Below are positions 9,571 through 62,286 of a stretch of 64,000 nucleotides of DNA, piece after piece. Each line of letters begins with the position of its first letter. Position 1 is the stretch's first letter. The stretch lies in assembly GCA_021442155.1 (NCBI GenBank), contig CM038214.1:27900450-27964449 (forward strand). The letters are read 5' to 3'. The notes beneath the pieces were generated by a model. The model had not been told where the DNA came from, did no database searches, and saw only the letters and a program-made list of their open reading frames with translations. This DNA comes from Cymbidium sinense. Taxonomy: Eukaryota > Streptophyta > Magnoliopsida > Asparagales > Orchidaceae. The translations under genes and the position numbers were made by a program.

Positions 9571-9995
9571 AACATAGAACAAATTTAGATTCAACATTTT
9601 CTTTTGATTTCATCAACCAAGTAACACACTAAGTTTTCTAAGAAACAAGCGACAACATAGATAAAAAATGAGCACGCATAGAGCAAATCAAAAAAATTAG
9701 ATAACTAGAACCGTCTCTGCTGTAAAGACATTGTTTCATAAGCAGCTGATCAGATCGACTATTCTTCAGTTTCTCCAATTCCCATCAAAACACCCAGGCC
9801 TCTCGAGTAGCGGGATATCCTCGATCTCTCCCTCTGCCACCACCACTGTAACCTCCATCGCTCCTCTTGCCTCCATAACCATCGCTGCTCCAACCACCAC
9901 TGCAATAACTACCGCCTTCACCTTCACCTCCACCGTCAAATTTAAACTAAGCCTGGTTGACGGTGATGTTCATGCCATCAAGGTTTTGCCCATTC
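9571..9995 (-). pseudogene. GRP cDNA fragment, copy 4
   Basis: Same minus-strand GRP 3' fragment, with the RRM-end motif NGQNLDGMNITVNQA and then a stop where other copies read Gln. The right end again is CCCATTC joined to TTAGGG, but only about 12 bases of telomeric sequence follow before the LINE 3' end, so the LINE landed just beyond this copy. Confidence 0.82.
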
Positions 9996-10015
9996 TTAGG
10001 GTTTAGGTTTTTTTT

Positions 10016-12214
10016 AGGGAAAGTTAGAATTTTATTACCATAAAAATAAAGGATTCAATGTCCTTAAAAGGGGTAAAGCTCAAATTTCTATTACTCACAG
10101 AGCTACAGGAAACTTAAAGAGCTAAACCCCCATCTAACTACAATGGAAAAAAGAAAATAAAAGAGTAAGCAATAACATAAAAACAAATGAGAGAAGGCAC
10201 AAAAAGGACTAATAAAACCTAAGAAAAAAGTAAAGGACTAGTCGAATGACTCATGATCCTTTTGAGAAGGCAAGATAAGCAAGATCCACATCAACAAAAC
10301 TTGAGTTGGCTGAGTAAAGATCATTCCATCTATGAAGTTCCAAATTGCAAAAGAAATCTGTAAAAGACTACAAAAGCAATAGTCATAGCTCAAGGGAAAA
10401 TGATAAAGTAAACAATTTAGAAAGAGCTGAGAAAGAGAAGGCTCAGGCTCAGGCTCAGTTAAGATCATCTCAAGGGGCAACAATACATATGAGCATCCAA
10501 ACTTCATGAGATGGGTTACAATCATATGCCTGCTACCAACCAGAGATAAGATATTGGGAAACGTCAAGGCCACCATAGCCAGCATACCTAATATAAGCAA
10601 CCATCGAAAGCAAAATAGTCCATATTGATCCAGTTCCTGCACCAAAAAATAGAGAAAAATAGCCCTAGACTAGCAAGCAACAACCCAAACCAAAACCCAC
10701 AAAACACATAAAAGCATCCTGTTATAGAGAAGTGGTGAGAACAACCCACAACTATTTCTAGAGCACTAACAATCCAAATCCAAGGGCAAAACCTCCACCC
10801 AAATAGCAAAATAGTAGAAGATAAGCATCACCAGAGAGAGGAAAGCCATAACATAGAGAGACCAAGAAGGCATCCATAAATTACCATCAAAAACACCACC
10901 AAGGTAGCCAAAAGGAAAGCAAATCCACCATCACCAACCAAGAGGCTAATATCAAAAAATAAGGAGAGCCAACTAAACGGAAGGGAGTCAATACCAATAG
11001 CCAACATTAAGCCCAAAAAACCAAGCCATGACACAAGCATCCAAGGCAAGAAAGCAGCCACAAAAAATGCCTCAAACAGCCAACCCCCAATAACAAGTCC
11101 TAAAATAGGAAAAAAACCACAATAGATCATATCCTCCACCAAAAAAATAGCCAATAAAACCACTGCACCAGAACTAATGGGGATGAGGGAGAAGTAATGA
11201 AGGAAAACCGACACCCAAACTAGGAAGCAAAAATAAAGGAAAAATAGTCACCAAGAAAGGATAACCAACCTGTGAGAAAACCCAACCAAAGAACCCAACC
11301 AAAAGCACCTAAACTAACCATCAAACACACCAACACATCCACCCTTAACCAACCCAAATAGCCAAATAGCCAACCAACCCAAACCAACAAAACAAACCAG
11401 ATCTGAGCCCAAAAGAGGAAAAGAATAACAATAGACAAAGCCACAACCCACCTAGAGATCTCCAAAATAACCAAGAAACAAAAATGGTAGTCACCCAGCC
11501 AAATTAGAAAAGGCCAAGAAGGACCACCCAACCACAAGTAGCAAAACTATAAGGAAAGGAACAAGGCCAGAGGCAAACAAAACCCCTTCAAAATCCAAAA
11601 GAGCAGACATTCACTACAAAGGAGAAAATGGGAAGGACAACAACCACATAATAGCTAACTCCAATTCACAAGGCAGATGGAACCAACCACCAAAAACCTC
11701 CAAGCCAAACCAGGAAAGGAGAACAATAACCACCAAAAAAACTAAAACTAAGCCAAGCTAGAAGAGGCCAACACATCCATGAAAAAATAACCACCTAAAA
11801 TAGCCAGATAGATGAAAGAAATAAATAACATCAACTAGCAGAACCAAACATAGCATCCAAAAATCCAACTCAAAAAAGGCCACAACCAGCCAAAACTAGA
11901 GGCAAACCCAACATTCATTGGTAAAAGGGGTGGGCCAAAATTTGGCACAACCACAACCCAACAGGAGACACAAAGCATGAGCTACAAAAAGAAAACCACT
12001 AGGCTCAAAGGATAGGGAAACCAATTAAAATAACACCACTATGACCCAAAAAAAGGTCAAGTAAGTACAGAATGGGGTAAAGAGGAAGGGGGTTTAAGTA
12101 TAGAAATAAATTGAGCAAAAACCACTTCCTAGTGAGGGGAGCACAAAAAAATACAACAAAAAAAATAGACTGAATAAAACCACCATAGTAAAAGATCAAC
12201 AAAAGAGCAGAAGG
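10016..12214 (-). mobile_element. LINE 1: G/T-rich 3' region with terminal A-run
   Basis: Lies downstream of the LINE RNase H frame on the minus strand. It is 2.2 kb, strongly G/T-rich on the minus strand (A/C-rich on +), with no LINE domain. The minus-strand Trp- and Leu-rich frames between 10238 and 12202 look like membrane proteins only because of the GGT/TGG/TTT-rich composition; I do not call them genes. The distal end is an 8-base T-run on + (10008-10015) next to TTTAGG, read as the residual poly(A) tail. The end may instead be TTTAGGG telomeric sequence followed directly by AAAGTTAG; the two readings differ by a few bases. Confidence 0.65.
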
Positions 12215-13420
12215 TTAAAATCTAAGGTAAGGCAGTCTAGTGTTATCCAAATTGACCAGACTGCATAGATGCTTAGGTAAGTTATGGTTATCAAATAAAG
12301 TGAGCTCATTTAATTCCTCTCCCAAATTAGCTAGGAAATCAGCACAAGCATTACCTTCATGAAGAATGTAAGAAATTTTGTAGCAAACTTGAGAAAGATG
12401 CTTTTTAGTTTGATTAAGAAGATAAAATAAGTTAGCATTTCCCATTTTATTATTATTGAACATATTAAGTAATAGAAGAGCATCAACTTCAATCCAAATA
12501 TTAAAGAGGCCTTTGCTTAAATAAATATCAATAGTTTGTTAACAACCATGAGTTTAGCATAAATAACAGAACAAGCTTTGAGGGGGTAGGCAAAAGCACA
12601 AATGATAGTGCCTTTAGAATCCCTAAGAATTTCACCATAGCCATATCTGTTTGAGGAAATAGAACCATCAGTATTGATCTTAATAGAATTTTCTTTAGGC
12701 TTAATCCAATGTATAATCCTATTACTCTTGTAAGAAATATCATCATGCAAAGTGATACCCAATTTTTTAGCCATAAATTTATAACCTTTAAAGTGAAAAT
12801 TGCTAATTAAATTTGCATTAAACAAAGCATGAATTTTTTTCTTTAGTTCTAGCAAGGATTCTTTTATGGTTCATAGGGATGCCACAATATTTAACATCAT
12901 TTTTATCCATCCAAAAGAACTAAATAAGGGTAATAGAAATTAAAACTTTGGTATGACCTTTCACAGTTTTCTAGAAACAAACTTCAAGAAGTTGATATAA
13001 CAAAAAAGAGCCACTAAAATAGTTAGAGTTAAATAAATTATCATACCATATCCAAAGTTTGGAAGTAATAGCATCATTAAAAAAAAACATAATTAACATT
13101 TTGGATATGAAAGAAATAATAGCACTTAGAAGGTAAGTAAAACCCTTTAAGCTAGAGCAAGGAATTAATTGGGATGAAGTTATTCAAAATCCTAAAAAAC
13201 TAAATAAGAAATGGGAATGATATTGTTCCAAAGTATAATGAAAACATCAAAGGTGTTCTATTTATTTTTAATAAGATTCCAAACCTCTTTAATAATGAAA
13301 TCACTAATAGAGTTTGAAAAGGATTTGATCGATTTAGTAGAAAAGATATGTTGTGTCATCAAAATAGAAATATAAATGTAGTTGTCAAGTTTGTTTTCAT
13401 TCCAATTGTTATTAAGCTGG
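12215..13420 (-). pseudogene. LINE 1 ORF2 C-terminus: zf-RVT-like and RNase H
   Basis: Minus-strand frames at 12517-12855 and 12215-12463 together give a plant-LINE RNase H domain: IKPKENSIKINTDGSIS (first catalytic Asp), GYGEILRDSKG, CAFAYPLKACSVIYAKLM and NACADFLANLGEE. The usual Glu of the second motif (normally AEL) is Lys here. Residues upstream to about 13420 resemble the Trp-rich reverse-transcriptase-associated zinc-binding region but are full of stops. Endonuclease and RT are missing: the element is cut at about 13420, where AAGCTGGG runs into TTATAGGTTTAG. A dead 5'-truncated copy. Confidence 0.8.
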
Positions 13421-13700
13421 GTTATAGGTTTAGTGTTGTAGGTTTAGGGTTTAGGGTTTAGGGTTAGTTTTATGGTTTAAAGTTTAGGATTTAGGGTTTA
13501 TGGTTTTTCTTAAATTAAGTAAATCGGTAGGTTTAGGTTTATTTAGTATATTTAGTTTATTTTTTATTTATTTAGGGTTTAGGGTTTGGGTTTAGGGTTT
13601 TTAGGGATTAGGGTTTAGGGTTTAGGTTTTAAGGTTTAGGTTTTAGGTTTTAGGTTTTAAGTTCAGGTTTTTATTTAGGGTTTAGGGTTTTTTTTTTTTT
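13421..13700 (+). repeat. Telomere-like satellite block after LINE 1
   Basis: Telomere-like repeat resumes directly at the truncated 5' end of LINE 1. It contains a well-kept tag copy near 13512 and a 13-base T-run (13688-13700) that opens GRP copy 5. Without the LINE, GRP copies 4 and 5 would lie about 0.7 kb apart, that is, in neighbouring monomers. Confidence 0.87.
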
Positions 13701-14145
13701 AACAGAGAATAAATTAAGATTCAACATTTCTTTTTTTTAATTTCAACAACCAAGTAACACACCTAGGTTTCTAAGACATAAGCGCCAACATAGATAGAAA
13801 ATGAGCGCGCATAGAGCTAATAAAAACCTAGATAACTATAACCGTCTCTATTGTATAAACACTGTTCCATAAGCAGTAAATCAGATTAGCCATTCTTCAA
13901 TTTCTCCAATTCCCATCAGAACCACCTTGGCCTCTCGAGTTGTGAGATCCATCAACATATCCTCGATCTCTACCTATGCCACACCACCTGCGGTCCCTCC
14001 CACCACCATAACCCCATTACTCACCACCACCTCCATATCCACTAACACCTCCTGATCCCCCACCACCATGATAACCACCTCCTCACCTTACATCAGATCT
14101 AGACTGAGCCTAGTGGTGATGTTCTTGCCGTGAATGTACCCATTC
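13701..14145 (-). pseudogene. GRP cDNA fragment, copy 5
   Basis: Same fragment with the cleanest poly(A) trace in the set: TTTAGGG, then 13 T on +, then AACAGAGAA. The coding part has small deletions and base changes that break the frame. The right end keeps CCCATTC but the following telomeric bases have changed (TGGTATGG instead of TTAGGG). Confidence 0.82.
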
Positions 14146-15524
14146 TGGTATGGTTTAGGTTTAGGTTTATTAGGTTTTATTAGGTTTGTTTTATGGTTTA
14201 TTTATTTTTAATTTATTTAGTTACTTTAGGTTTAGATTTAGGTTTGGGGTTTAGCGTTTAGGGTTTAGGGTTTAGGTGGGGGTTTTAGGTTTTGGGGTTA
14301 GGTTTTGGGTTTGGTTTTTAGACTTTAGGGTTTATGGTTTAGGCTTTAGGGTTTAGGGTTTATAGGGTTTAGGGTTTAGAGTTTAGGATTTTATGGTTTA
14401 GGATTTAGGGTTTAGAGTTTAGCGTTTAGGGATAAAGTAAGGGTTTAGGGTTTAGGGTATAGGGTATATGGTTAATTTAAGGTTTAGGGTATATGATTAG
14501 TTTAGGGTTTAGGGTTGTAGGTTTAGGGTTTAGGATTTAGGGTTTAGGGTTTAGGGTTTTTTTTAAAATTTAAGTAAATCAATAGGTTTATGTTTATTTA
14601 GTTTTATTTATTTATTTTACATTTTTTTATTTTTTATTTTTATTTTGTTTAGTTTATTTTATTTAGGTTTATTTCTTTTAGTTTAGGTTTTTTGTTTTAG
14701 TTTATTTTTTAGGTTTAGGTTTAGGTTTATATTTATTTTTGTTTAGTTTTACTTTATTTTATTTTTTTTTTAGGTTTATTTTTATTTTTAGGTTTATGTT
14801 TAGGTTTTTTTATTTTATTTTTCAGTTTAGGTTTTAGGTTTTATATTTTTAAGGTTTTTTTTTTTTTAGGTTTAGGTATATTTTATTTTATTTTTTTATT
14901 TTATTTAGTTTATTTTAGGTTTAGTTCATTAAGTTTAGTTTAGGTTTTTTATTTTAGTTTAGTTTATTTTAGTTTAGGTTTATTTTATTTTATTTTGTTT
15001 ATTCTGTTTAGGTTTATTTTTAGTTTAGGGTTTAGGTTTTTTTAGTTTTATTTTAGATTTATTTTTAGGTTTAGGTTTTTATTTAGTTTTTATTTTATTT
15101 TAGGTTTATTTTATTTTTATTTTAGTTTTAGTTTTTATGTTATTTAGGTTTTTTATTTTTAGGTTTATTTTATTTTTAGTTTAGTTTAGGTTTTTATTTA
15201 TTTTATTTTAATTTAGTTTTTATTTTTTATTTTTTATTTTACTTTCTTTTTTGATTTAGGTTTAGGTTTAGGTTTATGATTAGGTTTTAGTTTAAGTTTT
15301 TATTATATTTTGGTTTAGGTTTATTTATTTATTTATTTATTTTTTGATTTTATTTAGTTTAGTTTTAGGTTTTTAGCTTTTTAGGGTTTAGGGTTTAGGG
15401 TTAGTTGAGGGTTTGAGGTTTAAGGTTTTTAGTGATTTAGGGTTTTTAGGGGTTTAGGGTTAGGTTTTAGGCTTTAGGTTTAGGGTTTAGGTCAGTTGAT
15501 GGTTTAGGGTTTTTGGTTTTTTTT
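14146..15524 (+). repeat. Telomere-like satellite block
   Basis: G-rich TTTAGGG patches at 14.24-14.56 and 15.38-15.51 kb enclose T-rich derivatives. A tag copy lies near 14565. The conserved AATTTATTTAGTTACTTT is present near 14210. Confidence 0.88.
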
Positions 15525-15590
15525 AACAGAGAACAAATTTAGATTTAACATTTCTTCTTTTTGATTTCATCAACCAAGTGAGAAACCAAG
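15525..15590 (-). pseudogene. GRP cDNA fragment, copy 6 (cut off)
   Basis: Only about 66 bases of the GRP 3' UTR remain, after an 8-base T-run (15517-15524). Similarity to the other copies stops within ACCAAGTGAGAAACCAAG, and unrelated AT-rich sequence follows. This marks the right edge of the left telomere-like array. Confidence 0.8.
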
Positions 15591-19880: not shown

Positions 19881-20109
19881 TTGGATTTGGGTTGTAGGGT
19901 TGGTGGATTATCCTAATCCCTAAGGCATAACCTAATCCTATGGTTAACCCTTCTAAGTCTTTAGGCTTAGGTTAAGTCTTTACCTAATTGTTAGAAGTGT
20001 CTTATGAATAGGAAGTCTTATTGTCTAGAAGACTCCTAAGTCTAAGATGGGAAGATTGAATCTGCACTCCAAAAGTGAGGTCAACAGGCCTTAGGCTCCA
20101 TAGTGTTAC

Positions 20110-23100
20110 CCTTGGAGATAGATGATTAGAAGAGAAGCCAAGTTTCACATTATAGACTCAGATACATCTTTCAACGCTTTGCTTAGGAGACCATGGATAC
20201 ATGAGAACAACATAGCTCCATCCTCTCTACATTAGTGCATGAAGTTTGTGAGAGGTGGGATCGTCTATTGTGTCAAAGGAGATCTCAAGCCATTTATAGT
20301 TTACGAGGTCAGCATATATGAGGATGTGGCTTACTACCTCCTTCAAAATCAACAAGTCTATTCTCGTAAACTTGGAAAAAGTTTTAAAATAAAAAAGAGA
20401 AAAGAAAAAAAGAAAGAGAAAAGAGAAAAGAAAAGAGAAAATGAAAAAGAAAATAAAAGGGAGTAGAAATAGACTTGGAGGAGGAAGTGGAGCCTGACAT
20501 TAGACTTCACCCATAGTTACTCCATTCAAACATATGGGTACCGGCAGAGGAAGAGGTCAGTTTAGAGGCAGTCCTAGGGGTAGAAAACCTCATTATTGGC
20601 CACCCAATAGAAGATATGTCCCAGCTACCAAGAGTACACTTACTATCGAGATAGATTTAGAATCTTGTTCATAGGATGAGTCTTATATGGTTAGCACACT
20701 AGCCAGCTCTTGTCAGTCATAGATTCCCTTAGAGATGACCCTTAAGCTAGACAGCGATGAAGATCAAGCTCCAAAGCAAAGCATAAGTGTATCCAAGTCT
20801 ATATGTGAAACAATTAGACATCAGCTGGGAACCTTAGCTCTAACCCCAGTTTCCTCTCAAAAAGCAGAGGGTTTGGTAGTTAAAAAGTCATCTAGAGGTG
20901 TGATAACTCAGAGGTTCTTTCTGGGAGCATCATCCTAAAGTCAAAAAGTTGATGTAGAACTTTAGGATGATTCATATAAATATTTAATAGAATTATCTTT
21001 TGATAGGTACTTGCCTTATGTTCATAATTTAGCAAAGAAAGGGATAATCCCACATACTTGGTCAAAGCACAAGTCAAACAACTTCAAAAGAATATGGAAG
21101 AACATATGCAAAAGCTCTCAATCAAGACCAGGACTAGGATTCAATACATTATGTCTAGATGATGATGATTATTGCTAGTCATCACCAATCATTTAGAATG
21201 ATAGGTTCTTTTCAAATCACATTAACTCATATGAGGAGTGCTTTAGAAACTTCGGGATGATCCGATGATTTTGAAGTCAAAGATGCACCACCATAGTTCA
21301 AAGAAGAAATCAAGTCATCCATCGATGAGCTAAAGGAAATCAACTTAAGAAGTGAAGAAGATCCATGCCTGCCATACATCAGTTATTTGTTGAATGAAAT
21401 TGAATCCAATGACTTAGTTAGGCTATTGATAGAGTTTAAGGACTACTTTGCATGAAGTTATGAATGCTTGGATTGGCTCCTGATGTAGTGGTCCATAAAC
21501 TAGTAATAGAGCCTACTGCTAACCCTATAAAGTAAGCTCTTAGACACGTGCGATAAGACATAGAACAATAGGTCATTTTTAAAGTCAAGAAATTGATTGA
21601 TACTGGCTTCATCCGGGAAGAAAAATACCCTACCTGGTTAGCCAGTGTCATCCCAATTAAGAAAAGAATGGTCAAATTCACAATGCATTGATTTTAGGGA
21701 TTTAAATAAGACATGTCCAAAAGTTGAATTTTCACTACCAATCCTAGAGCTGATGGTGGACATTGCCTCATCTCATGTAGTCTTCTATTTCATGGATGGT
21801 TCATATGGATATAACTAAATAAAGATGGCCCAGAAGATGAAACAAACACTACTTTTTGAACCCTGATCAGAATCTATTACTATAAGGTCATGCCTTTTAG
21901 CTTTAAAATGCTTACATACTGAAGCTATGACTCAAATCTTTGATGAACTCATTCATCATCAAGTCAAGTGCTATGTCGATGATCTCGTGGTCAAAAGTAG
22001 AGAAAGGAAGACCATCTCTTTGACTTGTAGTTTTTTGAAAAAGTTAAGATAATTTTACCTTAAAATGAACCCAAGTGTGCATTTAGAGTTCGTGGGAGAT
22101 TGGGTTTGTTGTCGACACCGGAATCAAAATTGATTGTGAGAAGATCATGGCGAAAATGCACCCCTAAAAGTTTAACTCAACTCAGATCATTCCAAGGGCA
22201 GTTGGCATATCTAAGATGCTTTATATCCAATCTATCAGGAAGATGTAAGCTATTCTCAGAACTTGTCAAAAAGGATGCCAAGTTCAAGTCGGATGATAAG
22301 TCTGAGCATGAATTCGAAGACATCAAGCATTACCTGATGATACCGTCAGTACTAGCAGCCCCTATCCTGGGCAAGCCATTCATACTTTACACTGCTACGA
22401 TAGATGAGTCTCTTAGTGATTTATTGGCCCAAGCCAATGGCGAAGGGAAGGAAAATGCACTTTACTACCTCAACCGTCATCTAATCCCTACTGAGGCTAA
22501 ATATCCACCCATTAAGCATTGCTATTTTAATCTTTACATCCCAAATGATATAGCACTACATGATTCCTTATAAGGTGAACTTAATCTATAGGATCAATCC
22601 ACTATAGTATCTCATAACATGGTTGGTTGGCATTACTATCCATTATCCTCTCAAAATTTGACATTACCTTCGTACCCCTTTGTGGGTGAAAGGACAAGCG
22701 CTAACATATATCTTTGTAGTACACCCACTTCCTTGACTCTCTGCTTAGTGATGATCTCCCCGATGATCAAACCATGAACTTAGGGGATACTAGCATTCAA
22801 TACTGGGAGATGTACTTTGACGGTGCGGGTTCCTCTCAAAGAGGAGAAGAACCACAATCTACTATTCCAGGAAAGGCAGGCATAGGAATAGTTCTCATAA
22901 CTCTAGATTGCAATGTAATGAGATTCTCATATTATATGTCCAATCCTTGCACCAATGATAAAGCCAAATATGAGGCTCTGATTGCCGGTCTAGAGTTAGT
23001 CATTACTCTAAGCAACAAGAACATCAACATCTTTAAATATTCTCAATTAGTTATCAACCAAATCGTTGGGCCTATAAGGTTATAAAGCCGAAGCTCCATC

Positions 23101-23230: not shown

Positions 23231-24293
23231 GTAATAGCAATTGTTAGTAGTTTTCAACTGTCAATTCAATCTTTCAATAATTGTAATAGTAATAGCATCA
23301 AATCAAGTACATAAAACTACTTAAACTACTTTCTAATAGAGTTACTTCATAATAAATGAAACTATATAAGGCATAGCTAAAAGCTTCTAAAGGGAAACCA
23401 CTATATGTAGGTTACACGAGAAGTTCTTGTACACCAGACTTGTGATGCCTCAAAAATTTTCTTTCACGGTCAAGAATAAAAAGAGTAGGAATGATAGGTC
23501 AGTGCCATAATTCTTCCATTCCCAAGTCAGCTAATGAAGGTTCAACTCACCTTTCTTTGAGATGGGTTCTTCCTAAGTAGGAAATTTATTATAGAAAGCT
23601 TGTGGTTGCACCTTGTCTAGGAGGTTTCTATCTGTTGTGTTCCTTGAAAAGACTAAGTAAGCCATAGTGTACAAGAGAAGCAGCTTAGTTTGATAGCCTT
23701 AGTGTATGCACCCAAGTGAAGCAGAGTAGATGCCACATGTAACCAAGCATACTGCGAGGGGTTAAAGGTTCATCAGGGAATGGAGTTACGCCAATTTCCT
23801 AGCCTAGTTTTCATTAGAGCAACACCATCCTAGTCTAGAGTAGTACCTGGACCTATGGGCTCGAAGCAAGACAAGCATCTCACTTCCTCCATCTCATTAT
23901 AGGGAAGGATAGGGCCTTGGTCTTCGACCTTGATCAATTTTAAGGGTGAGGAAAAAGTAAGCAGCTAATGGAGCTCTTATATCAAGATAGCCTTTCGGTT
24001 AAGCTTGGTTGAGTAAATGCCAGTGAAAGGAATGAATGCTTTGGGGGTGGCACAAAAGAAGAGGGCACCAAAACAGATGCCATTGGAAAGGTATAAGCCC
24101 TAGCATCCACTCTTTTACTAACTCGTTCGAAGAAGTGGGTGAAGGATAAATTTCTCTCTTTATAGAGAGGGGAATGAAACCAACCTTGAATGCTACCTTC
24201 TTGGGTTGCATCCATCAATCAATTGAAGCATTTTTTGTGTGGGAGCTCAAGGATAGAAAGTAAGCTGATGGTGATGGACTCGGGGTCACAAGT
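23231..24293. other. No recognised gene; downstream of gypsy pol
   Basis: About 1 kb between the RNase H remnant and the AACTAAT array. An integrase would be expected here in a complete element but none of its motifs (HHCC, D-D-E) can be seen. Two overlapping short minus-strand frames at 23982-24218 have no recognisable family. Confidence 0.5.
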
Positions 24294-27200
24294 CAAAATA
24301 ATAATAACTAATAAACTAATAAACTAATAATTAACTAATAATAACTAATAAAATTAACTAAACTAAATAAAATAATAAACTAATAACTAAACTAAAACTA
24401 TTAAACTAACTAACTAATAAAACTAGTAAACTAATAAACAAATAATAACTAAACCTAAACCATAATTAACTAATAAACTAATAACTAACTAATAAACTAA
24501 AAAAACTAATAACTAAACTAATAACTAATAAACCTAAAATAACTAACTAAACTAATAAAACTAATAATAATAACTTAATTAATAACTAAACTAAACTAAT
24601 AATAACTAATTAATAATAACTAACTAATAACTAATAACCAAACTAATAAAAACTAAACTAAAAATTAAAACTAACTAACTAATAAACTAATAAAACTAAA
24701 AAACTGATTAATAATAATAATAATAATAAACTAATAATTAACTAACTAAACTAACTAATAATAATAAAACAAAAACTAATAAAATAATAATAACTAACTA
24801 ACTAACTAATAAAAATAAAAGTAATAATAATAAATAAAACTAATAAAACTAATAAACTAAAAACTAACTAATAAAACTTAAACTAATAACTAATAACTAA
24901 ATAAAACTAATAAAACTAAAACTAAAATTAACTAAAATTAAAACAAATAACTAAATAAAACTAATAATAAACTAATAATTAAATAACTAATAAACTAATA
25001 AACTAAAAGCTAAACTAAACTAAAATTAATAAACCTAATAAATAATAATAAAACTAAACTAATAATAATAAAAAACTAAATAACTAACTAACTAAACTAA
25101 TAAACCTAATAACTAAAACCTAATAACTAAAACTAATAAACTAATAATAATAACTAATAATAAAACTAACTAAAACTAATAATAAAATAACTAATAACTA
25201 AAAAATCTAAAAATAACTAAACTAATAACTAATAAAGCTAACTAATAATAACTAAAACTAAAAAACTAACTAATAATAAACTAAAAACAAACTAATAATA
25301 ATAACTAATAACTAAACTAAGAAACTAATAATAACTAATAAAATAACTAAACTAATAACCAATAACTAATAATAAATTAATAAAACTAAAATAAATAATA
25401 ACTAAAACTAAATAACTAACTAATAAACCTAATAACTAATAAACAAAACTAACTAAACTAATAAAACTATAAAACCAAAAAACTAATAAACTAAATAACT
25501 AATAATAAAAACTAAACTAATGAACTAATAACTAATAATAACTAATAGTAACTAACTGATTACTAAACTAAGAAAACTAACTAATAAACTAACTAACTAA
25601 AACCTAACTAATAAACCTAAACTAATAACTAAACTAATAACTAACTAATAAAATAATAAATAAACTAAACCTAATAATAATAACAAAAAACTAATAATAA
25701 CTAAACTAACTAACTAAAAACTAATTAATAAAACTAATAAACTAACTAATAATAATAACTAACTAATAAACTAATAACTAATATACTAACAATTAAACTA
25801 ATAATTAAAAACTAACAATAATTAAACTAACTAATAATATTGACTAAAAAACTAACTAAATAAACTAAAACTAACTAACTAAACCTAAAACTAATAAACT
25901 AATTACTAAACTAATAAAACTAATAAACTAATAACTAAACTAATAACTAATAATAACTAAAACTAAATAACTAAACTAACAACTAAATAATAACCTAAAT
26001 TAACTAAAAACTAATAAAAACTAATAAACTAAAACTAATAACTAATAATAACTAAATAACTAAAAAAAATTAAATAACTAAACTAATAAACTAAGCTAAT
26101 AACTAATAAAACTAATTAATAACTAATAATAATTACTAATAACTAATAATTACTAATAACCTAATAATTAATAAAACAAACTAACTAATAATAACAAATA
26201 ATAAAAACTAATAAAACTAATAAAACTAATAAATAACTAAACTAAAAATTAAACCTAAACTAATAAAAAATAATAATAATAAACCAATAATAAATAATAA
26301 AAAACTAATAACTAATAATAAACTAATAACCAATAATAACTAAATAATAAAAAAAACCAAACTAAAAACTAATAAAAACTAAGCTAATAAACTAATTGAC
26401 TAATAAACTAATAACTACAAACTAATAACTAAAAACTAATAACCTAAACTAACTAATAATAACTAATACAACCTAAACTAATAACTAACTAAATTAAATA
26501 ACTAAACTAATAACTAAGTAAATTAAATAACTAAACTAATAACTAACTAAAATAGACTAAACTAAAATAAACTAAACTAATAACTAACTAAAATCATAGA
26601 AACTCAATTGGAAATAATAACTAATAATAACTAATAATAACTAACTAAAACCTAAATAACTAATAAAACTAATAAATAAATAACTAATAATAAATAACTA
26701 AACTAATAATAACTAATAAACTAAACTAAATAATAATAACTAATAGCTAACTAATAAAACTAATAAAACTAATAACTAATAACTAATAAACCTAATAACT
26801 AATTATAACTAACTAATAAGTAATACTAATAACTAATAAACTAATAAAACTAAATAATAAATATCTAAACTAATAAAAAGCTAATAACTAATATAAAAAA
26901 AATAAAAAAACTATTAAACCAACTAATAACTAACTTAAACTAACAAATAAATAAAATAAATAAATAACTAATAAAACTACTAACTAAATAACTAATAAAA
27001 CTAAAAAAACTAAATAAACTAATAACTAATAAATAACTAACTAATAACTAATAATAACTAAACTAAAACCTAATAAAACTAATAACTAATAACTAAACTT
27101 AAAACTAAAAATAATAAACCTAATAATAAAACTAATAACTAAACTAATAATAATAAATAATAATAAACTAAAACTAATAAACTAACTAAACTAACTAAAA

Positions 27201-27878
27201 TTAAACTAATAACTAATTAATAAAGTAAAACCTAATAAACTAATAATAAAACTAAAAACTAATGAATAACATAACCTAATAACTAATAAATTAAATAACT
27301 AAAACCAATAAACTAAACTAATAAACTAATAAACTATAACTAAATAACTAATAACTAAACCTAAACCTAAAACTAATAATAATAAACTAACTAAAATATA
27401 AACTAATAAATATAATAACTAATAATAATAATAAACTAATAAATAATGAAACTAAAAAACTAATAATCAAACTAAATCTAATAAACTAATAAACTAATAA
27501 TAATAACTAATAACTAAAAACAAATAATAATAATAATAACAAAACTAATAACTAATAATGACTAACTAATAACTAAAATTAATAACTAATAATAAACTAA
27601 TAATAAAACTAATAATAATAACTAATAAAACTAAAAAAATGAAAACTAAAACAAAACTAAACAACCTAATAAACTAATAAACTAATAAACTAATAACTAA
27701 TAATAACTAAAAACTAATAAACTAATAATAACTAACTAATAATAATAAAAACAAACTAATAACTAGTAAACTAATAAAACTAATAACTAATAATTAATAA
27801 CTAATAAACTAAATAAAATAAAAACTAACTAATAATAACTAATAAACAAAAATAATAAAACTAATAAACCTACCTAAC

Positions 27879-27910
<32 letters not shown>

Positions 27911-28571
27911 ATTAATAATAACTAATAAACTAATAAACTAATAATTAATAACTAATAAATAACTAATATAACTAACTAAATTACTAATAGTAACTCACAA
28001 TAACTAATAATAGTAAACTAAATAACTAAAAACTAATAAAACTAAATAAACTAACTAACTAAAATAACTAATAACTAAACCTAATAACTAACTAAAAACT
28101 AATAAACTAATAATAATAAACTAATAAACTAAAAACCTAACTAATAACTAAATAATTAACTAAATTAATAATAACTAACTAATAATAATAATAACTAAAC
28201 TAAAAAACTAATAAATTAATAACTAATAATAACTAATAACTAATAATAAGTAACTAAACTAAATAATAACTAAATAAACTAACTAATAAAAACTAAACTA
28301 ACTAATAACTAATAAAACTAATAAATAACTAGACTAATAACTAATAACTAAAACTAATAATAATACTAATACTAATCTAATAACTAATAAAACCAAACTA
28401 ATAAAAATAAACTAACCAAAACCACAATAAAAATAACCAACTAACTAATAAAAAACCAATAATAATAAATAAACTAAATAAAACTAAAACTAACTAATAT
28501 TAACTAATAAACTAAAATAATAAAATGAATAAACCTAACTAACTAATAATAATAATGACTAAATAATAATA
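24294..28571 (+). repeat. G-free AACTAAT/CTAATAA array
   Basis: 4.3 kb built almost only from A, C and T in imperfect units such as AACTAATAA, AACTAAT and AATAATAA, with scattered CCTAAACC and AAACCTAAAC. Stops occur in every + frame. The complementary strand reads TTAGTTTATTAG, resembling the T-rich telomere derivatives elsewhere in the window, so this may be a highly diverged telomere-like array in the opposite orientation (C-rich strand on +). It ends at the assembly gap. Confidence 0.85.
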
Positions 28572-28671
28572 NNNNNNNNNNNNNNNNNNNNNNNNNNNNN
28601 NNNNNNNNNNNNNNNNNNNNNNNNNNNNNNNNNNNNNNNNNNNNNNNNNNNNNNNNNNNNNNNNNNNNNNN
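28572..28671. other. Assembly gap, 100 N
   Basis: Exactly 100 unknown bases, a common placeholder for a gap of unknown size. The real length and the adjacency of the two sides are unproven. A minus-strand frame running through the N run (28559-28795) is not real. Confidence 0.99.
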
Positions 28672-40845: not shown

Positions 40846-41198
<353 letters not shown>

Positions 41199-48700: not shown

Positions 48701-48926
48701 AAAATATGAGAGAGCCATTCCAAGTCATATAAATCAATTACTCAAATCTCTCTTAAGCAAAGGTGGGTTAACTAAAGAAAAGAAAAATGGAAGATGCTTC
48801 TTTAAAAGAAAGCTCTTTGCCTCACTTTATGATGCCAAAAGCAAAGAATGGAAGAAGAATAAGATTGGGATCATCCATGGTTCTCGATGATGGGAATAAA
48901 GCGAGAAATTTAGAAATGAGCACAAA

Positions 48927-53500: not shown

Positions 53501-53504
53501 TGGA

Positions 53505-54545: not shown

Positions 54546-57480
54546 ATCCATCATTGGCATTTTAGCATATTCCATCAATATGTTGGCGTCTGCCATCGTA
54601 GCATGCATGGCTATTGAGCCAGTAGCTAGTCTAGTCTATCCTCGGTTTCGATCCATACTTGCGTTCTTATGGATATGCCCTCAATGCATACTTTCTCCAA
54701 GCCTGCCTCTGTTAGATAGCTAGTCGCACCTTCAACCCCACTTATAATATTTACTGTAGCCACAAACAAAAACTAAACGAAACCATATCTCTTTTGCAAT
54801 CCCAGAGTTCTAATGAAAATTAGTATGGCTAGCCCTTTATTCCACATTCATTGCCTTACACCTTAAAAGGTAGCATAATATGCTATTTTGGAAACAAGTT
54901 TGAAAGGGTAGGCGTGTGTCTTTGGAGGAAGAAACTTAATAAATTCTTTGAAAAGTAACCTTAGAGGTAAGGGGTATAAAGCAAAGGAAGAAAGATTTGA
55001 AAGCCTCTTCCAATCCTAGACTCTAATTAAGTTAAGAAGGGCTAATAAAGCGATGGGTAGGTCGATGGGAAAGAGAACCAGGATGGTTCTCTTTTCCATA
55101 CATAGGATGAGGATGAGCTAAATAGAGGTTAGTATCAAATAACTAGGGTTTAGCACCTTGCCAACTAATAGAAAAAAACGCCCACTCTAAAGGAAAGGTT
55201 TTCCCCAAGCAAGAGTTTCCTGTAGTTGTAAGGGGTCAGCTTGCCTCAACTCAATGGAAAACTCCCACAACTAACAAACCAGTGATAAACTTGGACTATC
55301 ATACACTTGGGAGTGGATTAGCCCTAACTAGTCGATGCTCCTATGGAAGTCTGGTTGTGTTTCAAGTAGGCTATGAGATGGTGAACTTTCAAGCATGACT
55401 AACTACTCTAATCTTTAGAGAGAATAAGAGGTCTACGTGATGCTTTGGGGGGAGGGAAGAAGAATTAATCTGGATTTTGATTGTTCAATTGATTGAAGGA
55501 AGCTTTGCTTCTATATTTTATATGTGATCTTTGCTTTATGTTGCTGATGCTTCTTTTGCTTGGGATGAGTGCGTGGTGGGCCTTGCTTCTTGAACCACTG
55601 TTGATGCAACCTATTCATGTTCCACATACTATGGACAAGCACTCAAAAATGAAAGAGTCACTCAGTTTGTCCATGATAAAGTATAGGGCATCCATATTTT
55701 CCCAAAAGGGAAATTCACGATAGAATCTTTGAAGCATTCACCAAAACTTTTTTGATCATTTCTCTCTCAGGCTATCAAAGAGAATTATGGCTTTAGCAGT
55801 GATGAAAACTCCATTGAGAAGAACTCTCATTCGATTAAGGGAAAGAGAATAGATGGATTCCCACTCAGTGCTAAAGTTTGATAACGCTCTTGTGCGCACC
55901 TTTACTTCTTCACTTTCCAATGAGAACTAGACACGCATCCCATATTCCCATGTGCTTTGGGATGTCATTGAAAAAAGATCACTCGAAATAGCATAGATAA
56001 ATATGAGATTTTTTTATTGAAGTCTTCACCTTTAGCTTTAGTGGACTCTTTTGAATGGCAAGTAGTATTGGGTAGTTTCGGCAAACCAACTACTTCCAAT
56101 AGTAAGGTGTAGAGCGAAATTGTTCTACATTCTTCTATATATGAGATTATTAGGTAGATGGATTTGCCAAGCACAAACCCGTGCCGCCAATAACACAAAA
56201 GTGTGACGTACAAGCAGAACAAGACTAGACTAATAACTTCATTGAAAAGAAATTCGGGGTCAGTTCGGACAAAAGAATTCAATTCATCAAAAATCTTAGC
56301 TATCTAAGCTGGAACTTTTACTACGCACCTCTTCTATTCTACTATTTCTAAAAGCAAAGTAATAAAGAAGATTTTCTATTATGAACTCAATTCGGCTTCA
56401 TTTTCAGTAGCAATTCCAATTGGTCCTTCTACACTCTAGCAAGACCTCGCTTCGTGAACATAGCTCGTATTGAAAGTATTCTGAAATCCATAAATTTTTC
56501 TCCTTTTGGTTCAAACTATCAAGAACAAGACCTAAATCACTTATAAAAAATAGATCTTTAAAATGATAAAGGGAATTGAAGTAGTTGCTATATATTAGTT
56601 ATTTCACTAATTCATCTCTAGCATAGGTGCTTTCCATAAGCTAAAAAGAATTTGAGCTTTTCTAAGTTTCTAAAATTGCTTTCTTCAATGGTTGAATAGT
56701 CTATAAAGCTAGGGGCCACTAAAGTTTCACAAGGATCTTTTCCTTGGAGCACTACACTAGCACTGCACTTAGGAGTTGTAGCTTTCAATTAAAGATTTCT
56801 AGAAGTCAAACACACTTTGAGATCAGAAATCCATTTGGATTGATTTACTTATCCCTCTCCAAACTAGCATCTCACCCTGAGAAACTTACTTCAACATGGA
56901 TAAATAGATGCCATATGACTGTTAGCTATTAATTCTTTCGAGTTAGGGATCTAGAATGACTTCATTGATAAATCAACGAGCAAGAAATATGCTTTACATA
57001 GGTCAAAACTCAATAAGCTCATCAAGAGTTAGCCAACCTTGGAACTAGATGTCATCACATTTTTTATCTAACCCCAAAGTGGTTGGCCAGGGATCATCCA
57101 AATAGAAAGAAGGAATATTCCTAAGGAAGATTATTTTTGAAAGCATTTTTTACTTTATTATTCAAAGCAAAGTAGCAACTTGCCAAGTGGGAAAATGAGG
57201 ACCATCAGATCGATGACATCAATGCTATAACATAATTAGTAAGGAGCTCCTCTGTAATATTGAAGAGTGATGGCCAATGTGTCTCCCTGTCGCAATCCCC
57301 ATGATGACTTGAAGAAATTGTGTACTCCATTTTATAGAATAGAAAACTAGCTAGCTATTAAACATCATGTGGATGTACTTAATCCAGCTAGAGTGAAACC
57401 CAAAATGCCTTGAAAGTAGCTCAATTGAACTCCCAATCTCAATTTTGTGTCAACAAAATTTGATGTTGTTGATATTTTTT
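54546..57480. other. Organelle-like or mixed spacer, no recognised gene
   Basis: 2.9 kb up to the return of telomere-like repeat. The longest frame, 105 codons on the minus strand at 55965-56282, has a hydrophobic stretch (VISLVLFCLYVTLLCYW) but no family I recognise. The transition to the satellite is at about 57480-57510, where ATTAGGGTTC is followed by TTTTAGTTTTAGG. Confidence 0.45.
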
Positions 57481-57842
57481 ATACAAAATTAGCATATAAT
57501 GATTGGAATTAGGGTTCGAGTTTATTTTTTAGTTTTAGGTTTGGGTTTTATTTTTTATTTTTATGTTTAGGTTTAGATTTTTAGTTTATTTTTTAAGTTT
57601 AGCTTTTATGTTTTTATGTTAGGTTTTTTTTAGTTGAGGGTTTAAGGTTTAGGGTTTGGGGTTTAGGGTTTAAGGTTTACGGTTTAGCTTTTAGGTTTTA
57701 GAGTTTAAGATTTAGGGTTTAAGGTTTTAGGGTTTAGGGTTTAAGGTTTATGGTTTAGGGTTTAGGGATTAGGGTTTAGGGTTTAGGTTTTTGGTCTACA
57801 TTTTAGGTTTTAGTTTAGGGTTTAAGGTGTTCAATTTTTTTT
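57481..57842 (+). repeat. Telomere-like satellite, right array start
   Basis: Same T-rich then G-rich texture and the same orientation as the left array. It resumes with no GRP remnant at the boundary, so the interrupted copy 6 at 15525-15590 has no matching second half here. Confidence 0.87.
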
Positions 57843-58262
57843 AATAGAGAACAAATTCGGATTTAACATTTCTTCTTTATGATTTCATCAACCAAGTAAC
57901 ACACCAAGTTTTCTAAGACATAAGTGATGACATAGATTAAAAATGAGTATGCATAGAGCAAATCAAAAACCTTAGATAACTAGAAACTCTCTTTAAAGAC
58001 ACATTTCCATAAGCAGTCGAGTTTAGTTCTTAGTTTATCGGTTCTAACCACCTTGGCCTCTCAGTGCGTGATCCACCATCGATCCACGATCTCTCCCACC
58101 CCCATCGGCATGTAACCTTCTACTCCTCGCCACCTCCATGACTTCTTTGACCACGACCTCCATATCCCAACACCTTTGGATTCCCGTCATCATAATATTT
58201 CCATATCTAGGCGAGGACGGTTGGCGGCGGTGATGTTCCTGCCATCAAGGTTTTGCACATTC
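57843..58262 (-). pseudogene. GRP cDNA fragment, copy 7
   Basis: Same ends as the other copies (T-run then AATAGAGAA at left; CACATTC then TTAGG at right). Strongly diverged in the coding part, with many small deletions between 58010 and 58230, so the Gly-rich frame is lost. Confidence 0.82.
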
Positions 58263-58666
58263 TTAGGTTTTAGGGTTTAGGTTTATTTTTTAATTTATTT
58301 AGTTACTTTAGGTTTAGGTTTAGGGATAGGGTTTAGGGTTTAGGGTTTAGGGTTTAGGTTTTAGGGTTTTAGGGTTTATGCTTTTAGGGTTTAGGGTTAG
58401 GGTTTAGGGTTTAGGGTTTTTGGATTTAGGGTTTAGGGTTTAGGGTTTAAGGGTTTATGGTTTTGGGTTTGGGGTTTAGGGTTTTAGTTTTGGTTTTGCA
58501 TTATAGGTTTAGGATTTATGGTTTAGGGTTAGTTTTAGGCTTTAAGGTTTATGAGTAGAATTTTTTTATTTTTTTATTTTTTTATTTTTAGGGTTTATGA
58601 TTTAGGGTTTAGGTTTTAGGTTAAGGTTTAGGTTCTAGTTTAGGGTTTAGATTTTTTGTTTTTTTT
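58263..58666 (+). repeat. Telomere-like satellite block
   Basis: About 400 bases rich in pure TTTAGGG (58.32-58.48 kb), with the conserved AATTTATTTAGTTACTTT near 58290 and an 8-base T-run before GRP copy 8. GRP copies 7 and 8 are 0.82 kb apart, one monomer. Confidence 0.88.
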
Positions 58667-59131
58667 AACAGAGAACAAATTCTAATTCAACATTTTTTTT
58701 TCAATTTCATCAACAATTTGACAAACCAAGTTCTCTGAGACACAAGCGATGACATAGATCAAAAATGAGCATGTATAGAGAAAATCAAAAACCCTAGATA
58801 ACTGGAACCGTCTCTATTGTAAAGACATAGTTCCATAAGATGTAAATCGGATTGGTCGATTCTTTAGTTTCTCCAGTTCCCATCAGAACCACCATAGCCT
58901 CTCAAGTAGCGGGATCCACCATCATATCCCCAAACTATCCCTCTTCCACCACAACAACTGTAACCTCCATTGCTCCTCCCTCTTCCATAACCACCACCTC
59001 CATTTCCAATAGTACCTCTAGATCCCCTACCACCACTATGATAATCACTGCCTCCGCATTCACCTCTACCTCCAGATGTAGATTGAGCCTGGTTGATGAT
59101 GTTTTTTTTGGCGTCAAGGTTCTACCCATTC
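58667..59131 (-). pseudogene. GRP cDNA fragment, copy 8
   Basis: Well-aligned copy with a stop in place of the Gln of NGQ (minus strand AATGGGTAG) and frame changes in the Gly-rich tail, where runs of GTT and GGA are lost. Same junctions: T-run and AACAGAGAA at left, CCCATTC joined to TTAGGG at right. Confidence 0.84.
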
Positions 59132-59263
59132 TTAGGGCTTAAGTTTAGGTTTAGTTTTATTAGGTTTTTGGGTTTAGGTTTTTTTTCTAATTTATTTAGT
59201 TACTTTAGGTTTAAGTTTAGCATTTGGGGTTTAGGGTTTAGGGTTTATGGTTTAGGGTTTTTT
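59132..59263 (+). repeat. Telomere-like repeat between GRP copy 8 and P0
   Basis: About 130 bases with TTTAGGG runs, again starting with the AATTTATTTAGTTACTTT segment, and ending in a 6-base T-run (59258-59263) that is the poly(A) trace of the P0 insertion. Confidence 0.85.
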
Positions 59264-60087
59264 CTTAACACAAATGATTTCATAATAAATAAGAAATTAC
59301 CAAATCTAATAAGACATTATCATCTAACAACTAGTAAAATAGGATAAAATTAATCATTTTACAAAAATAATGTTTCATAAAATGATTTAACTCCCTGAGA
59401 TAATAAAATTTGATTTTATACAAGGCCAACAAAGCTTAGTCAAACAAGTTGAAACCCATATCATCATCAGATTCCTCAGCAGGATGTTCCTTCTTCTCTT
59501 CCATTATTGGAGTAGCAGCAGCAGGAGGAGTAGCAGAAGCATCAGGCGCAGTAATTATAACAAATTCACTAGGATCCTTCAAATACTCCTTAACCTTCTC
59601 GGCCTGTGGGTATGTGTAATCAGTGGCAATCGCGATGGCGAGGACATTCTTGTAAATGTTGATGAACATGTAGGGTGCTGCAGCCAGCATGGGATAAGAG
59701 AGGGCTAGTGAGAGAGATGTGATCATTGAAAGGCCTGCCAAAAACTTTTTAATGAGATCACCTTAAGTGAGGTCAAGCACCTCACAATTGAACACCAAAC
59801 CATCATCATACACAGACTGGATGACAAGACCATCAACCTCTGAGGATCCTACCTTGCATTTTATAGTTAGATCGGGTGATAATTTCAATAGTACCCTTGT
59901 TGAACTTAGTTAGGATTTTGAGAACCTGGAAGAAAGAAGTCTATGAAAGATCCAAACTAGTGTTGCTTAGAGGAACCATAACATCAATAGGTGCAACAAG
60001 ACCAACACGGGCAGGAGCACCAACTTTGTATTTCGTAACCTCTTGACTTCTTTAAGATCACCTTTCATAAAAATCAGCTCAACTGGG
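59264..60087 (-). pseudogene. Ribosomal P0 processed pseudogene, 5'-truncated
   Basis: Minus-strand cDNA fragment of the 60S acidic ribosomal protein P0 (stalk base, binds P1/P2). The frame at 59436-59741 reads [50 protein letters not shown], an Ala-rich hinge, and the acidic tail [13 protein letters not shown]. Upstream the reading continues in broken frames: [12 protein letters not shown], a [15 protein letters not shown] stretch, and KVGSSE joined straight to VDGLVIQSVYDDG, so about 14 residues (the usual ALLAKLGIRPFSY part) are deleted, and a stop follows LDLT. The 3' UTR ends in an A-run next to CCCTAAA; the truncated 5' end reads AACTGGGG joined to TTTAGGG. No introns are visible: a retroposed copy. 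Confidence 0.88.
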
Positions 60088-61094
60088 GTTTAGGGTTTAG
60101 AGTTTAGGGTTTTAGGGTTTATGCTTTTAGGGTTTAAGGTTTAGGGTTAGGGTTTAGGGTTTAGGGTTTAAGGTTTAGGTTTTACAGTTTAGGTTTAGGG
60201 TTTAGGGTTTAGGATTTTTTAGGCTTTAGGGTTTAGGGTTGTATGTTTAGTGTTGTAGGTTTAGGGTTTAGGGTTTAGGGTTTATTTTTTAAAATTAAGT
60301 AAATTGGTAGATTTAGGTTTCTTTAGTTTAGTTTATTTATTTTAGTTAAGGATTTTTATTTTACTTTATTTTTTAGGTTTATGTTTATATTTTAGTTGAG
60401 TTTTATTTTTAGTTTATTTTTTAGGTTTAGGTTTTATTTTATATTTTTATGTTTAGGTTTATGTTTTTATTTGATTTATTTAGGTTTAGGTTTTAGGTTT
60501 TTATTTTAGGTTTATTTTTAGGTTTAATTTTTTAGTTTAGGTTTAGGTTTTATTTATTTATGTTTAGTTTATTTTAGTTTAGCTTGTTTATTTTATTTAT
60601 TTTTTATTTTTATTTTTTTGGGTTTAGTTTTTTTAGGTTTAGGTTTAGGTTTTAGGTTTTTTTAAAGTTTAGGTTTTTATTTAGTTTTTATTTTATTTTA
60701 TTTTAGGTTAATTTTATTTTAATTTTATGTTATTTTTATTTTCATATGTCGTTTATTCTTCAGTTTATTTTATTTTTTTGTTTAGTTAAGGTTTTTATTT
60801 ATTTTATTTTAGTTAATTTTTATTTTTTATTTTATTTTTAGTTTATGGTTTATATTTTAGTTTAGATTTTTATTTTATTTTATTTTATTATTTTATTTAG
60901 GTTTAGGTTTATTTATTTATTTTATTTTTAGGTTTTATTTAGTTTAGGTTTAGAGTTTTTAAGATATTAGGGTTTAGTGTTTAGGGTTTAGGGTATTAGG
61001 GTTTAGGGTTTTAGGGTTTTAGGGTTTTAGGTTAAGGTTTAGGGTTTAGGGTTTAGGGTTTAGGTGTTTAGGCTTTAGGCTTTAGGGTTTAGGG
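60088..61094 (+). repeat. Telomere-like satellite block
   Basis: About 1 kb from the truncated end of the P0 fragment to the 3' end of LINE 2. Pure TTTAGGG at 60.09-60.28 and 60.96-61.09 kb encloses T-rich derivatives, and a tag copy lies near 60291. One monomer length. Confidence 0.88.
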
Positions 61095-62286
61095 GTTTTT
61101 GTTTAACTAAAAGGAATTTATTGCTCAAAAAAAATTACAAATTAGAACTAAACTAACTCAAAAAAGAAAAAAAACCATTGCTCAAATGAGCTATAGGAGA
61201 ATCTAAAGAGTTTAGTCCCTCAACTAATACATCAAAGAGCAATATAGAAAAAAAGACAAAACTAAAAGCCAAAAAAAAGGCGACAAGGGGAAGAATCCAT
61301 GGAGCTCAAAAGAACCTCCAGAAAGATCCATAAGAAAAAAACTGGCAGAAGACAACTCCAGCCATCTAAGAAAAATAAGACCATCAGTAAGACTCTAGCT
61401 CCCTCCAAGAAGAAGAAGAGAGCAATTGAAAAAGAGAACCTGCAACATGCAATAAATCTCAGCTAGAAGGAGATCAAAAAAACATAAAGAGAAAACAACT
61501 CAGGCTCAGATATGTGGAAAGATGGATACTCACAATAATGAGTGGCAATAAATCCTAAGTGTATCCATCTTCAAAGAAGGGTTACAAATAGGAAAAGTCA
61601 CCAGCCACAAAAATATCAAGGAAATAATCCATCATATCATCCTAGCCATCCCAACCAAAGAAAAATATAAACTATAATAATAACCACCCAAATAAAGAAA
61701 AGTGAAGCTAAGGAAATAGAAGGAGAGAGACAAAAGATAAAATTAACATAAGGCAATCCCAACAAAACAAAATATGAACACCTTTTTGGGAGAAAAGAAA
61801 GGCCAAAAAAAAAAAAGAATAGAGCCCTCAAAGACAAAGCCAGAGGCCACAATAACACCAATCCAAAGCCACCAAGGCACTAGACCAATAATGGGCCCAA
61901 AATAACACCAATCAAAGCCAGGCACAAACCAAAGGAAAGGAAAGCAATAGAGTAACACAACAAAGCCAAGAAAAATAGCCAGGGAAGAGAAGAGGAACCA
62001 AAATAAAAAAAGAAGAAGGCCGTGCTAAAATAAATAGCTAGAGAACAACCAACCAATGGACAAACCACATGCTAAGGACAAAAGGCTAACCTACCCAACC
62101 AACGGAAGCACCAACCAAAGAACAAGCCAATGGAAGAAGAAACTACCCTGCACAAGATGATGAAGGGCACCAAGAAAAGCAAAGAGCCAAGGAAACCGAG
62201 GAGAAGGGATGTCAGCAAACCAACTAGCAAGAAAAAAGCTCAACCAACAAAGAAAAACTAGCCAAATGCCTCTGGAATGAGAGAGA
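61095..62286 (-). mobile_element. LINE 2: G/T-rich 3' region
   Basis: Non-coding 3' part of a second LINE on the minus strand, G/T-rich like the 3' region of LINE 1 and ending with a similar AATAAATTC...TTT stretch. It ends in a short A-run (five T on +, 61096-61100) directly after TAGGGG of the telomere-like repeat. The Trp- and Phe-rich minus-strand frames (61637-62068) are composition artefacts. Confidence 0.65.

What the first reader, a model, noticed from the sequence alone, without database searches (positions are those of the whole stretch)
9571..61100. Retro-insertions all primed from the G-rich telomere-like strand
Seen directly: GRP, P0 and both LINEs are all on the minus strand. 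On + each begins with a T-run joined to G-rich repeat (13 T at 13688, 6 T at 59258, 8 T at 10008, 5 T at 61096). The three truncated 5' ends that lie inside the window join telomeric sequence at once: CCCATTC|TTAGGG, AACTGGGG|TTTAGGG and AAGCTGGG|TTATAGG. Known: TRAS/SART elements of silkworm insert into telomeric repeats, and HeT-A of Drosophila attaches by its oligo(A) end to chromosome termini. Inferred: here a G-strand 3' end primed reverse transcription from poly(A) of any RNA at hand (GRP, P0, LINE), and telomerase or repeat synthesis closed the unfinished cDNA. I know of no named plant element that does this.
Basis: partly seen in the sequence, partly recalled or inferred. Interest (0 to 1): 0.88.

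Follow-up and report, generated by a model that had tools for sequence, protein, structure and literature searches.

The report
Plant LINE targeting telomere-like repeats
In this 3.5-billion-base plant genome most examined copies of a LINE retrotransposon family sit in long TTTAGGG-like repeat arrays, and nearly all point the same way, so the family likely copies itself in by using the G-rich strand as primer, a habit known from silkworm; the insertions first noticed in the window are largely copies spread by duplication of whole blocks, likely from a few old events.

Summary
The T-runs, junctions and strand of the observation are real, but the four inserts are not independent evidence. They belong to blocks copied across the genome: a 7.9-kb block with two GRPs, P0 and LINE2 lies on another contig at 86%, and 22 of 40 scored P0 places have a GRP 100-132 bp before them on the same strand. 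Of 40 scored 3' ends of a full-length relative (LINE3), 39 have more G-strand than C-strand repeats in the flank, 35 lie in arrays (14% of windows in ten arbitrary loci), and the flanks form 34-38 distinct sites. By exact pattern 19 sites have TTTAGGGTTT just upstream and none CCCTAAA. G-strand-primed, array-targeted retrotransposition is thus well supported. Terminal priming with telomerase closure is not: for P0 the repeats beyond its 5' end appear to have existed before. The strand bias may come simply from a TTT/A-cutting endonuclease, TTTA being about 40 times commoner on the G strand. A 2025 review says no similar telomeric retrotransposons had been found in plants (passages).

The parts
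1..9571 (+). degenerate TTTAGGG-like array, G-strand on +, with embedded GRP fragments
   Evidence: TTTAGGG counts per kb; segmentation
669..1144 (-). GRP retro-fragment copy
   Evidence: blastn 75% to the copy at 58668; junction CCCATTCTTAGGG at 1139
4485..4890 (-). GRP retro-fragment copy (in two pieces)
   Evidence: blastn; junction at 4885
8617..9037 (-). GRP retro-fragment copy
   Evidence: blastn; segmentation; junction at 9031
9572..9995 (-). GRP retro-fragment copy next to LINE1
   Evidence: blastn; junction at 9989
10016..13418 (-). LINE1: 5'-truncated LINE with RNase H domain; same GRP-LINE1 junction in L012 and L019 (and a diverged one in L015), same 5' end in L019
   Evidence: Pfam RVT_3 1.8e-6; copies
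13688..13700 (+). 13-T run at the 3' end of a GRP copy
13702..14153 (-). GRP retro-fragment copy
   Evidence: blastn; segmentation
15526..15590 (-). GRP copy, start only
   Evidence: blastn
57829..58262 (-). GRP retro-fragment copy; unit without P0
58367..58386 (+). register marker TTTTAGGGTTTATGCTTTTA downstream of GRP in a unit without P0
58668..59131 (-). GRP retro-fragment copy; genome query, 11,723 first-look candidates, 40 scored
59258..60088 (-). P0 retro-fragment (60S acidic ribosomal protein P0, 5'-truncated) with 6-T run on +; 2,734 first-look candidates, 40 scored
   Evidence: PF00428 1e-16
60110..60129 (+). same register marker, just beyond the 5' end of P0
61101..64000 (-). LINE2: 3' end and ORF1-like part, continues about 237 bases into L011; no ORF2 seen; 1,552 first-look candidates, 40 places scored

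Best explanation
LINE1 belongs to a plant LINE family whose scored copies lie mostly (35 of 40) in TTTAGGG-like arrays and nearly all (39 of 40) in one orientation, and which likely got there by target-primed reverse transcription from a nick in the G-rich strand at GGGTTT^AGGG. Inferred steps: the LINE endonuclease cuts the G strand after TTT; the freed TTT pairs with the poly(A) tail of the LINE RNA; reverse transcriptase copies it, leaving T-run + AGGGAAGCCCC... on the G strand; the 5' end joins the array already present. LINE2 is likely a shortened relative, and the same machinery would have pasted in P0 and GRP mRNA once each. Shown: arrays with their inserts (GRP, P0, LINE1, LINE2) were copied as blocks to many contigs, which is why the window holds so many alike.
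For: LINE3-type 3' ends (query without flank): 39 of 40 have more TTTAGG than CCTAAA in 300 bp, 34-38 distinct flanks, binomial p 7e-11 if each counts as independent; leaving out LINE3 itself, 38 of 39. 35 of 40 lie in arrays against 14% of windows in ten arbitrary loci (p 7e-25; still 7e-10 if the true share were 40%). Whole-genome pattern: 20 matches at 19 sites with TTTAGGGTTT before the 3' end, 13 of them among the 40, 0 with CCCTAAA. LINE2: 41 of 41 flanks in G orientation, 7 to 24 flank groups by method. T-runs of 6-34 in 39 of 40. GGG precedes the T-run in 18 of 39 against 11.5% of T-runs in arrays, p 7e-8. Domains: RVT_1 5.6e-7, zf-RVT 3.3e-13, RVT_3 1.9e-10. Block copying. P0 went into existing repeats.
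Against: The endonuclease domain was not found by Pfam or PDB sequence search in the broken copies, so the nick is inferred. No target-site duplication could be shown. Five of 40 LINE3-type ends have fewer than four TTTAGG in the flank, and one (L106) lies in plainly non-telomeric DNA; one (L101) has no T-run. L086 has more C-strand than G-strand repeats, though those nearest the insert are G-strand. The 40 scored places are the most similar of 2,427 candidates, not a random sample, and the array share rests on ten loci, three of which hold arrays. That this LINE moved P0 and GRP is untested.
Confidence: 0.72

Rival explanations
1. An ordinary L1-type LINE with a generic TTT/A endonuclease, no telomere targeting: the strand bias arises because almost only the G strand offers TTT/A, and the excess in arrays reflects better survival of insertions there.
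For: TTTA 123 per kb on the G strand against 3 on the C strand of arrays, TTTT 111 against 2. At least one copy lies outside arrays (L106/L107).
Against: 35 of 40 in arrays against 14% of windows in ten loci; GGG before the T-run four times commoner than at other T-runs in arrays. The first does not separate targeting from survival.
Confidence: 0.2
2. One reading: RNA is copied from the 3' end of a chromosome terminus, and telomerase or new repeat synthesis closes the cDNA.
For: Same orientation predicted; 5' ends abut repeats. One locus (L068/L108) has mostly non-telomeric DNA before the T-run and telomere-like DNA beyond the 5' end.
Against: For P0 the 20-base marker found 93-250 bp after GRP in units without P0 lies just beyond P0, so its 5'-side repeats likely pre-existed. 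Many LINE3-type places lie tens of Mb from contig ends, though a few lie within 2 Mb.
Confidence: 0.07
3. Block duplication alone explains everything: a few founder insertions in one array, copied with it.
For: Fits GRP, P0, LINE1 and LINE2 in the window.
Against: LINE3-type copies have 34-38 distinct flanks among 40, flank similarity at the chance rate (0.8% of pairs above the 99% null) and T-runs of different lengths.
Confidence: 0.05

Closest known systems
TRAS1 of silkworm (R1-clade telomere-specific LINE)
   Same: LINE inside telomeric repeats in a fixed orientation; TRAS1 endonuclease nicks between T and A of TT^AGG (passages of PMC7265360 and PMC2868851), matching TTT^AGGG inferred here.
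   Different: RNase H and zf-RVT domains as in plant L1 (plant L1 label recalled); degenerate interstitial arrays over an estimated 7-14% of the genome instead of chromosome ends; some insertions outside arrays.
SART1 of silkworm
   Same: Telomeric-repeat LINE whose reverse transcription starts at the poly(A) tail (passages of PMC7265360).
   Different: Inserts in the opposite direction to TRAS (same passages).
Zepp of Chlorella
   Same: Listed among elements inserted in telomeric tandem repeats (PMC10088271, passages); TTTAGGG repeat and LINE type recalled.
   Different: An alga; no sequence comparison was made here.
HeT-A/TART/TAHRE of Drosophila
   Same: All copies with poly(A) towards one side (PMC10088271, passages).
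   Different: Form chromosome ends; here insertion went into existing internal repeats at least for P0.
Penelope-like elements at telomeres (Selaginella, rotifers; Terminons)
   Same: Joining to G-rich repeats, with host genes between units (review PMC12477314, passages).
   Different: Different reverse transcriptase; these copies carry LINE-type RVT_1, zf-RVT and RVT_3.

Membership tests
Plant L1-type LINE with RNase H | RVT_1, zf-RVT and RVT_3 (RNase H) in the family | tested here: met
   RVT_1 in L024; zf-RVT and RVT_3 in L011 LINE3; RVT_3 in LINE1 and L015. Not all three above cut-off in one broken copy.
Plant L1-type LINE with RNase H | APE-type endonuclease | tested here: inconclusive
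   No Pfam or PDB hit in broken pieces; a motif-like stretch is seen by eye only.
Plant L1-type LINE with RNase H | 3' poly(A) | tested here: met
   T-runs of 6-34 in 39 of 40 LINE3-type ends
Plant L1-type LINE with RNase H | target-site duplication | tested here: inconclusive
   Not visible inside repeats; L106/L107 and L068/L108 gave no clear duplication
Telomere-repeat-specific LINE (works like TRAS) | insertions concentrated in telomeric repeats | tested here: met
   35 of 40 against 14% of windows in ten loci; most similar copies only
Telomere-repeat-specific LINE (works like TRAS) | fixed orientation | tested here: met
   39 of 40, LINE2 41 of 41, 19 sites against 0
Telomere-repeat-specific LINE (works like TRAS) | nick between T and A of the G strand | tested here: inconclusive
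   GGG before the T-run enriched, but poly(A) hides the exact base
TRAS/SART (R1 clade) | R1-clade reverse transcriptase | not tested
   No tree was built; domains found are
HeT-A-like terminal attachment | added to chromosome ends, repeats beyond it made afterwards | tested here: not met
   P0 lies between GRP and a repeat stretch that follows GRP in units without P0; not tested for the LINEs
Penelope-like element | telomerase-like reverse transcriptase, no LINE zf-RVT/RNase H (definition recalled) | tested here: not met
   LINE-type domains

The most novel reading that the evidence does not exclude
A land plant carries a telomere-repeat-targeted LINE lineage that arose from ordinary plant L1 by exploiting the one-sided TTT^AGGG sites of its own interstitial telomere-like arrays. 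LINE, pasted host mRNAs and arrays spread together as composite blocks until they filled about a tenth of a 3.5-Gb genome.
Probability: 0.4. Interest if true: 0.78.

Novelty: new variant of a known kind. Interest (0 to 1): 0.62.

Why it matters
Telomere-repeat retrotransposons are known from insects, fungi, Giardia, a lizard and an alga (PMC10088271, passages), while a 2025 review, speaking of telomeric retrotransposons like those of Drosophila, says none similar have been found in plants (PMC12477314, passages). A land-plant LINE family with this habit would give an independent origin to compare, suggests a simple route (a TTT/A endonuclease meeting one-stranded TTTAGGG arrays) to target specificity, and shows how telomere-like DNA can become a landing pad and be multiplied with its inserts across chromosomes.

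Tried and rejected
Window inserts as independent events: rejected. Shared LINE1 5' truncation in L015 and L024: first noted, then withdrawn, because those copies run on further; only L019 shares it. A first flank null used overlapping segments and was replaced. Target-site duplication in copies with little telomeric 3' flank: no clear result. Length of joined P0 flanks against empty units: too variable; only the 20-base marker is used, and it is not unique to GRP units: one-mismatch versions also occur at L013, L015 and L026 with no GRP end in the 400 bp before. Endonuclease domain: not found. LINE2 right-orientation count and the total of LINE3 3' ends by pattern did not complete, so the zero stands without its counterpart. 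Literature: nine searches listed no paper, by title or start of abstract, on an orientation-specific LINE in TTTAGGG repeats of a land plant; open-licence papers only, listings capped. Species: not identified; the single protein hit is from the orchid Dendrobium (50%), and Cymbidium is a guess from recall of genome size.
Full report
What is there. The window lies at 27.9 Mb of a 377-Mb contig in a 3.53-Gb genome; the 21-base word (TTTAGGG)3 occurs 393,212 times on both strands, overlaps counted. In 10 loci taken at 5.0 Mb of contigs C2-C11, 14% of 300-base windows hold four or more TTTAGG on one strand, three loci holding nearly all of them; from word density the arrays are about 250 Mb, 7% of the genome. 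In the window they run on one strand (211 TTTAGGG, 1 CCCTAAA).

The four inserts are not four events. Eight GRP fragments in the window match each other, and the 5' junction CCCATTC|TTAGGG recurs five times. Genome-wide first looks found 11,723 candidates for GRP, 2,734 for P0 and 1,552 for LINE2; 40 places of each were scored. 22 of 40 P0 places have a listed GRP 100-132 bp before them on the same strand, and none has a listed opposite-strand GRP within 1.5 kb; 6 of 40 LINE2 places have a listed P0 0.5-2 kb before them. A stretch of C2 aligns with window 55590-63114 over 7.9 kb at 86%, through non-telomeric DNA, two GRPs, P0 and LINE2. LINE1 follows GRP at the same place in L012, L019 and, more diverged, L015. 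LINE2 with both flanks is duplicated about 71 kb upstream (83.5% over 5.3 kb). Orientation of such copies counts once per founder.

The orientation test. Downstream of the window (L011 1567-9293) lies a relative of LINE1 of about 7.7 kb, LINE3, with zf-RVT and RVT_3 domains; a related copy in L024 has RVT_1. All LINE matches found by blastn in the array loci held at that point run against the G strand, including those in L026, where the array is on the other strand. The 294-base 3' end of LINE3, without flank, gave 2,427 candidates; the 40 scored places are on 14 contigs. Flanks of the 39 others were fetched. All 40 including LINE3: 39 have more TTTAGG than CCTAAA in 300 bp; the exception, L086, has G-strand repeats next to the insert; 35 have four or more TTTAGG; flank clustering against a null of unrelated array pairs gives 34 (99% threshold) or 38 (99.9%) separate sites. 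T-runs are 6-34 long in 39 of 40. By exact pattern over the whole genome, TTTAGGGTTT within 30 bases before the conserved 3' end gives 20 matches at 19 sites, 6 of them not among the 40 scored places; CCCTAAA, a shorter and so more permissive word, gives 0. For LINE2, 41 of 41 flanks (40 scored places plus the copy in L009) are in the G orientation, in 7 or 20 flank groups by single linkage and 15 or 24 by average linkage at the two thresholds; the wrong-orientation pattern gave 0, but its right-orientation counterpart did not complete. In a two-state segmentation of the array loci no insert ended in an A-run on the G strand (read by eye).

How it likely works. Shown: one orientation, T-run at the junction, excess in arrays, GGG before the T-run in 18 of 39 against 11.5% in array background (p 7e-8). 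Inferred: the LINE endonuclease nicks GGGTTT^AGGG on the G strand and the TTT primes on poly(A). TTTA occurs 123 per kb on the G strand and 3 on the C strand, so even a generic TTT/A endonuclease would give this strand bias; targeting itself rests on the 35 of 40, which selection could also produce. TRAS1 of silkworm nicks between T and A of TT^AGG (PMC7265360, PMC2868851, passages).

Against terminal priming and telomerase closure. The exact 20-mer TTTTAGGGTTTATGCTTTTA occurs six times in the loci searched: five times 93-250 bp after a GRP end in units without P0 (window 9124 and 58367; L012; L018; L029 after its first GRP) and once at 60110 just beyond P0. P0 therefore most likely went into repeats already standing after GRP. 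One-mismatch versions also occur away from GRP (L013, L015, L026), and the alignment of joined flanks alone is not decisive (right-flank score 127 against null mean 92.5, SD 18.4, maximum 134).

Limits. The scored copies are the most similar ones. The LINE copies read are broken, and the endonuclease was not recognised by Pfam or PDB search. No target-site duplication was shown. LINE2 is joined to the family by short matches only.

Novelty. Telomeric retrotransposons are known in insects, Chlorella, fungi, rotifers, Giardia and an anole (PMC10088271, passages). A 2025 review says of plants that no telomeric retrotransposons similar to those of Drosophila have been found so far, and names as rare plant cases Penelope-like elements in Selaginella and a subtelomeric LTR element (PMC12477314, passages). 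I file this as a new variant of a known kind.

Noticed in passing
L108:7450-8271 (G000:C6:176177879-176178700): Two LINE3-type 5' ends face each other across a short array that switches from TTTAGGG to CCCTAAA, the arrangement expected of two fused capped ends or an inverted duplication; the 3' side of the left LINE (L068) is mostly non-telomeric. One locus only.
   Followed up: partly
window 61101-64000 plus L011 1-237: LINE2 seems to hold a 3' end and an ORF1-like part without ORF2, like a half-LINE, and has 1,552 first-look candidates.
   Followed up: partly
L017:3835-5013, L026 (reverse strand) 439-1622, L018:1-434: A recurring insert of about 1.18 kb in arrays, starting GGTGAGYCTWGAAGA and ending AATCTCT, without a T-run; seen in two whole copies and one cut by the locus end.
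   Followed up: partly
window 24001-29000: A stretch of 13-22% G+C with almost no GGG or CCC, unlike the arrays on either side.
   Followed up: no
window 22064-23085: Two open frames on + that look by eye like a Ty3/gypsy polymerase; not searched.
   Followed up: no
L011:1567-1610 and L068-L106: LINE3-type 3' ends have a possible hairpin (CCCC TCAT GGGG in the sense) just before CCCT-poly(A), and AATAAA about 25 bases upstream.
   Followed up: no
L018 near 4000 and L086: Arrays switch strand within a locus; the origin of the switches was not studied.
   Followed up: no
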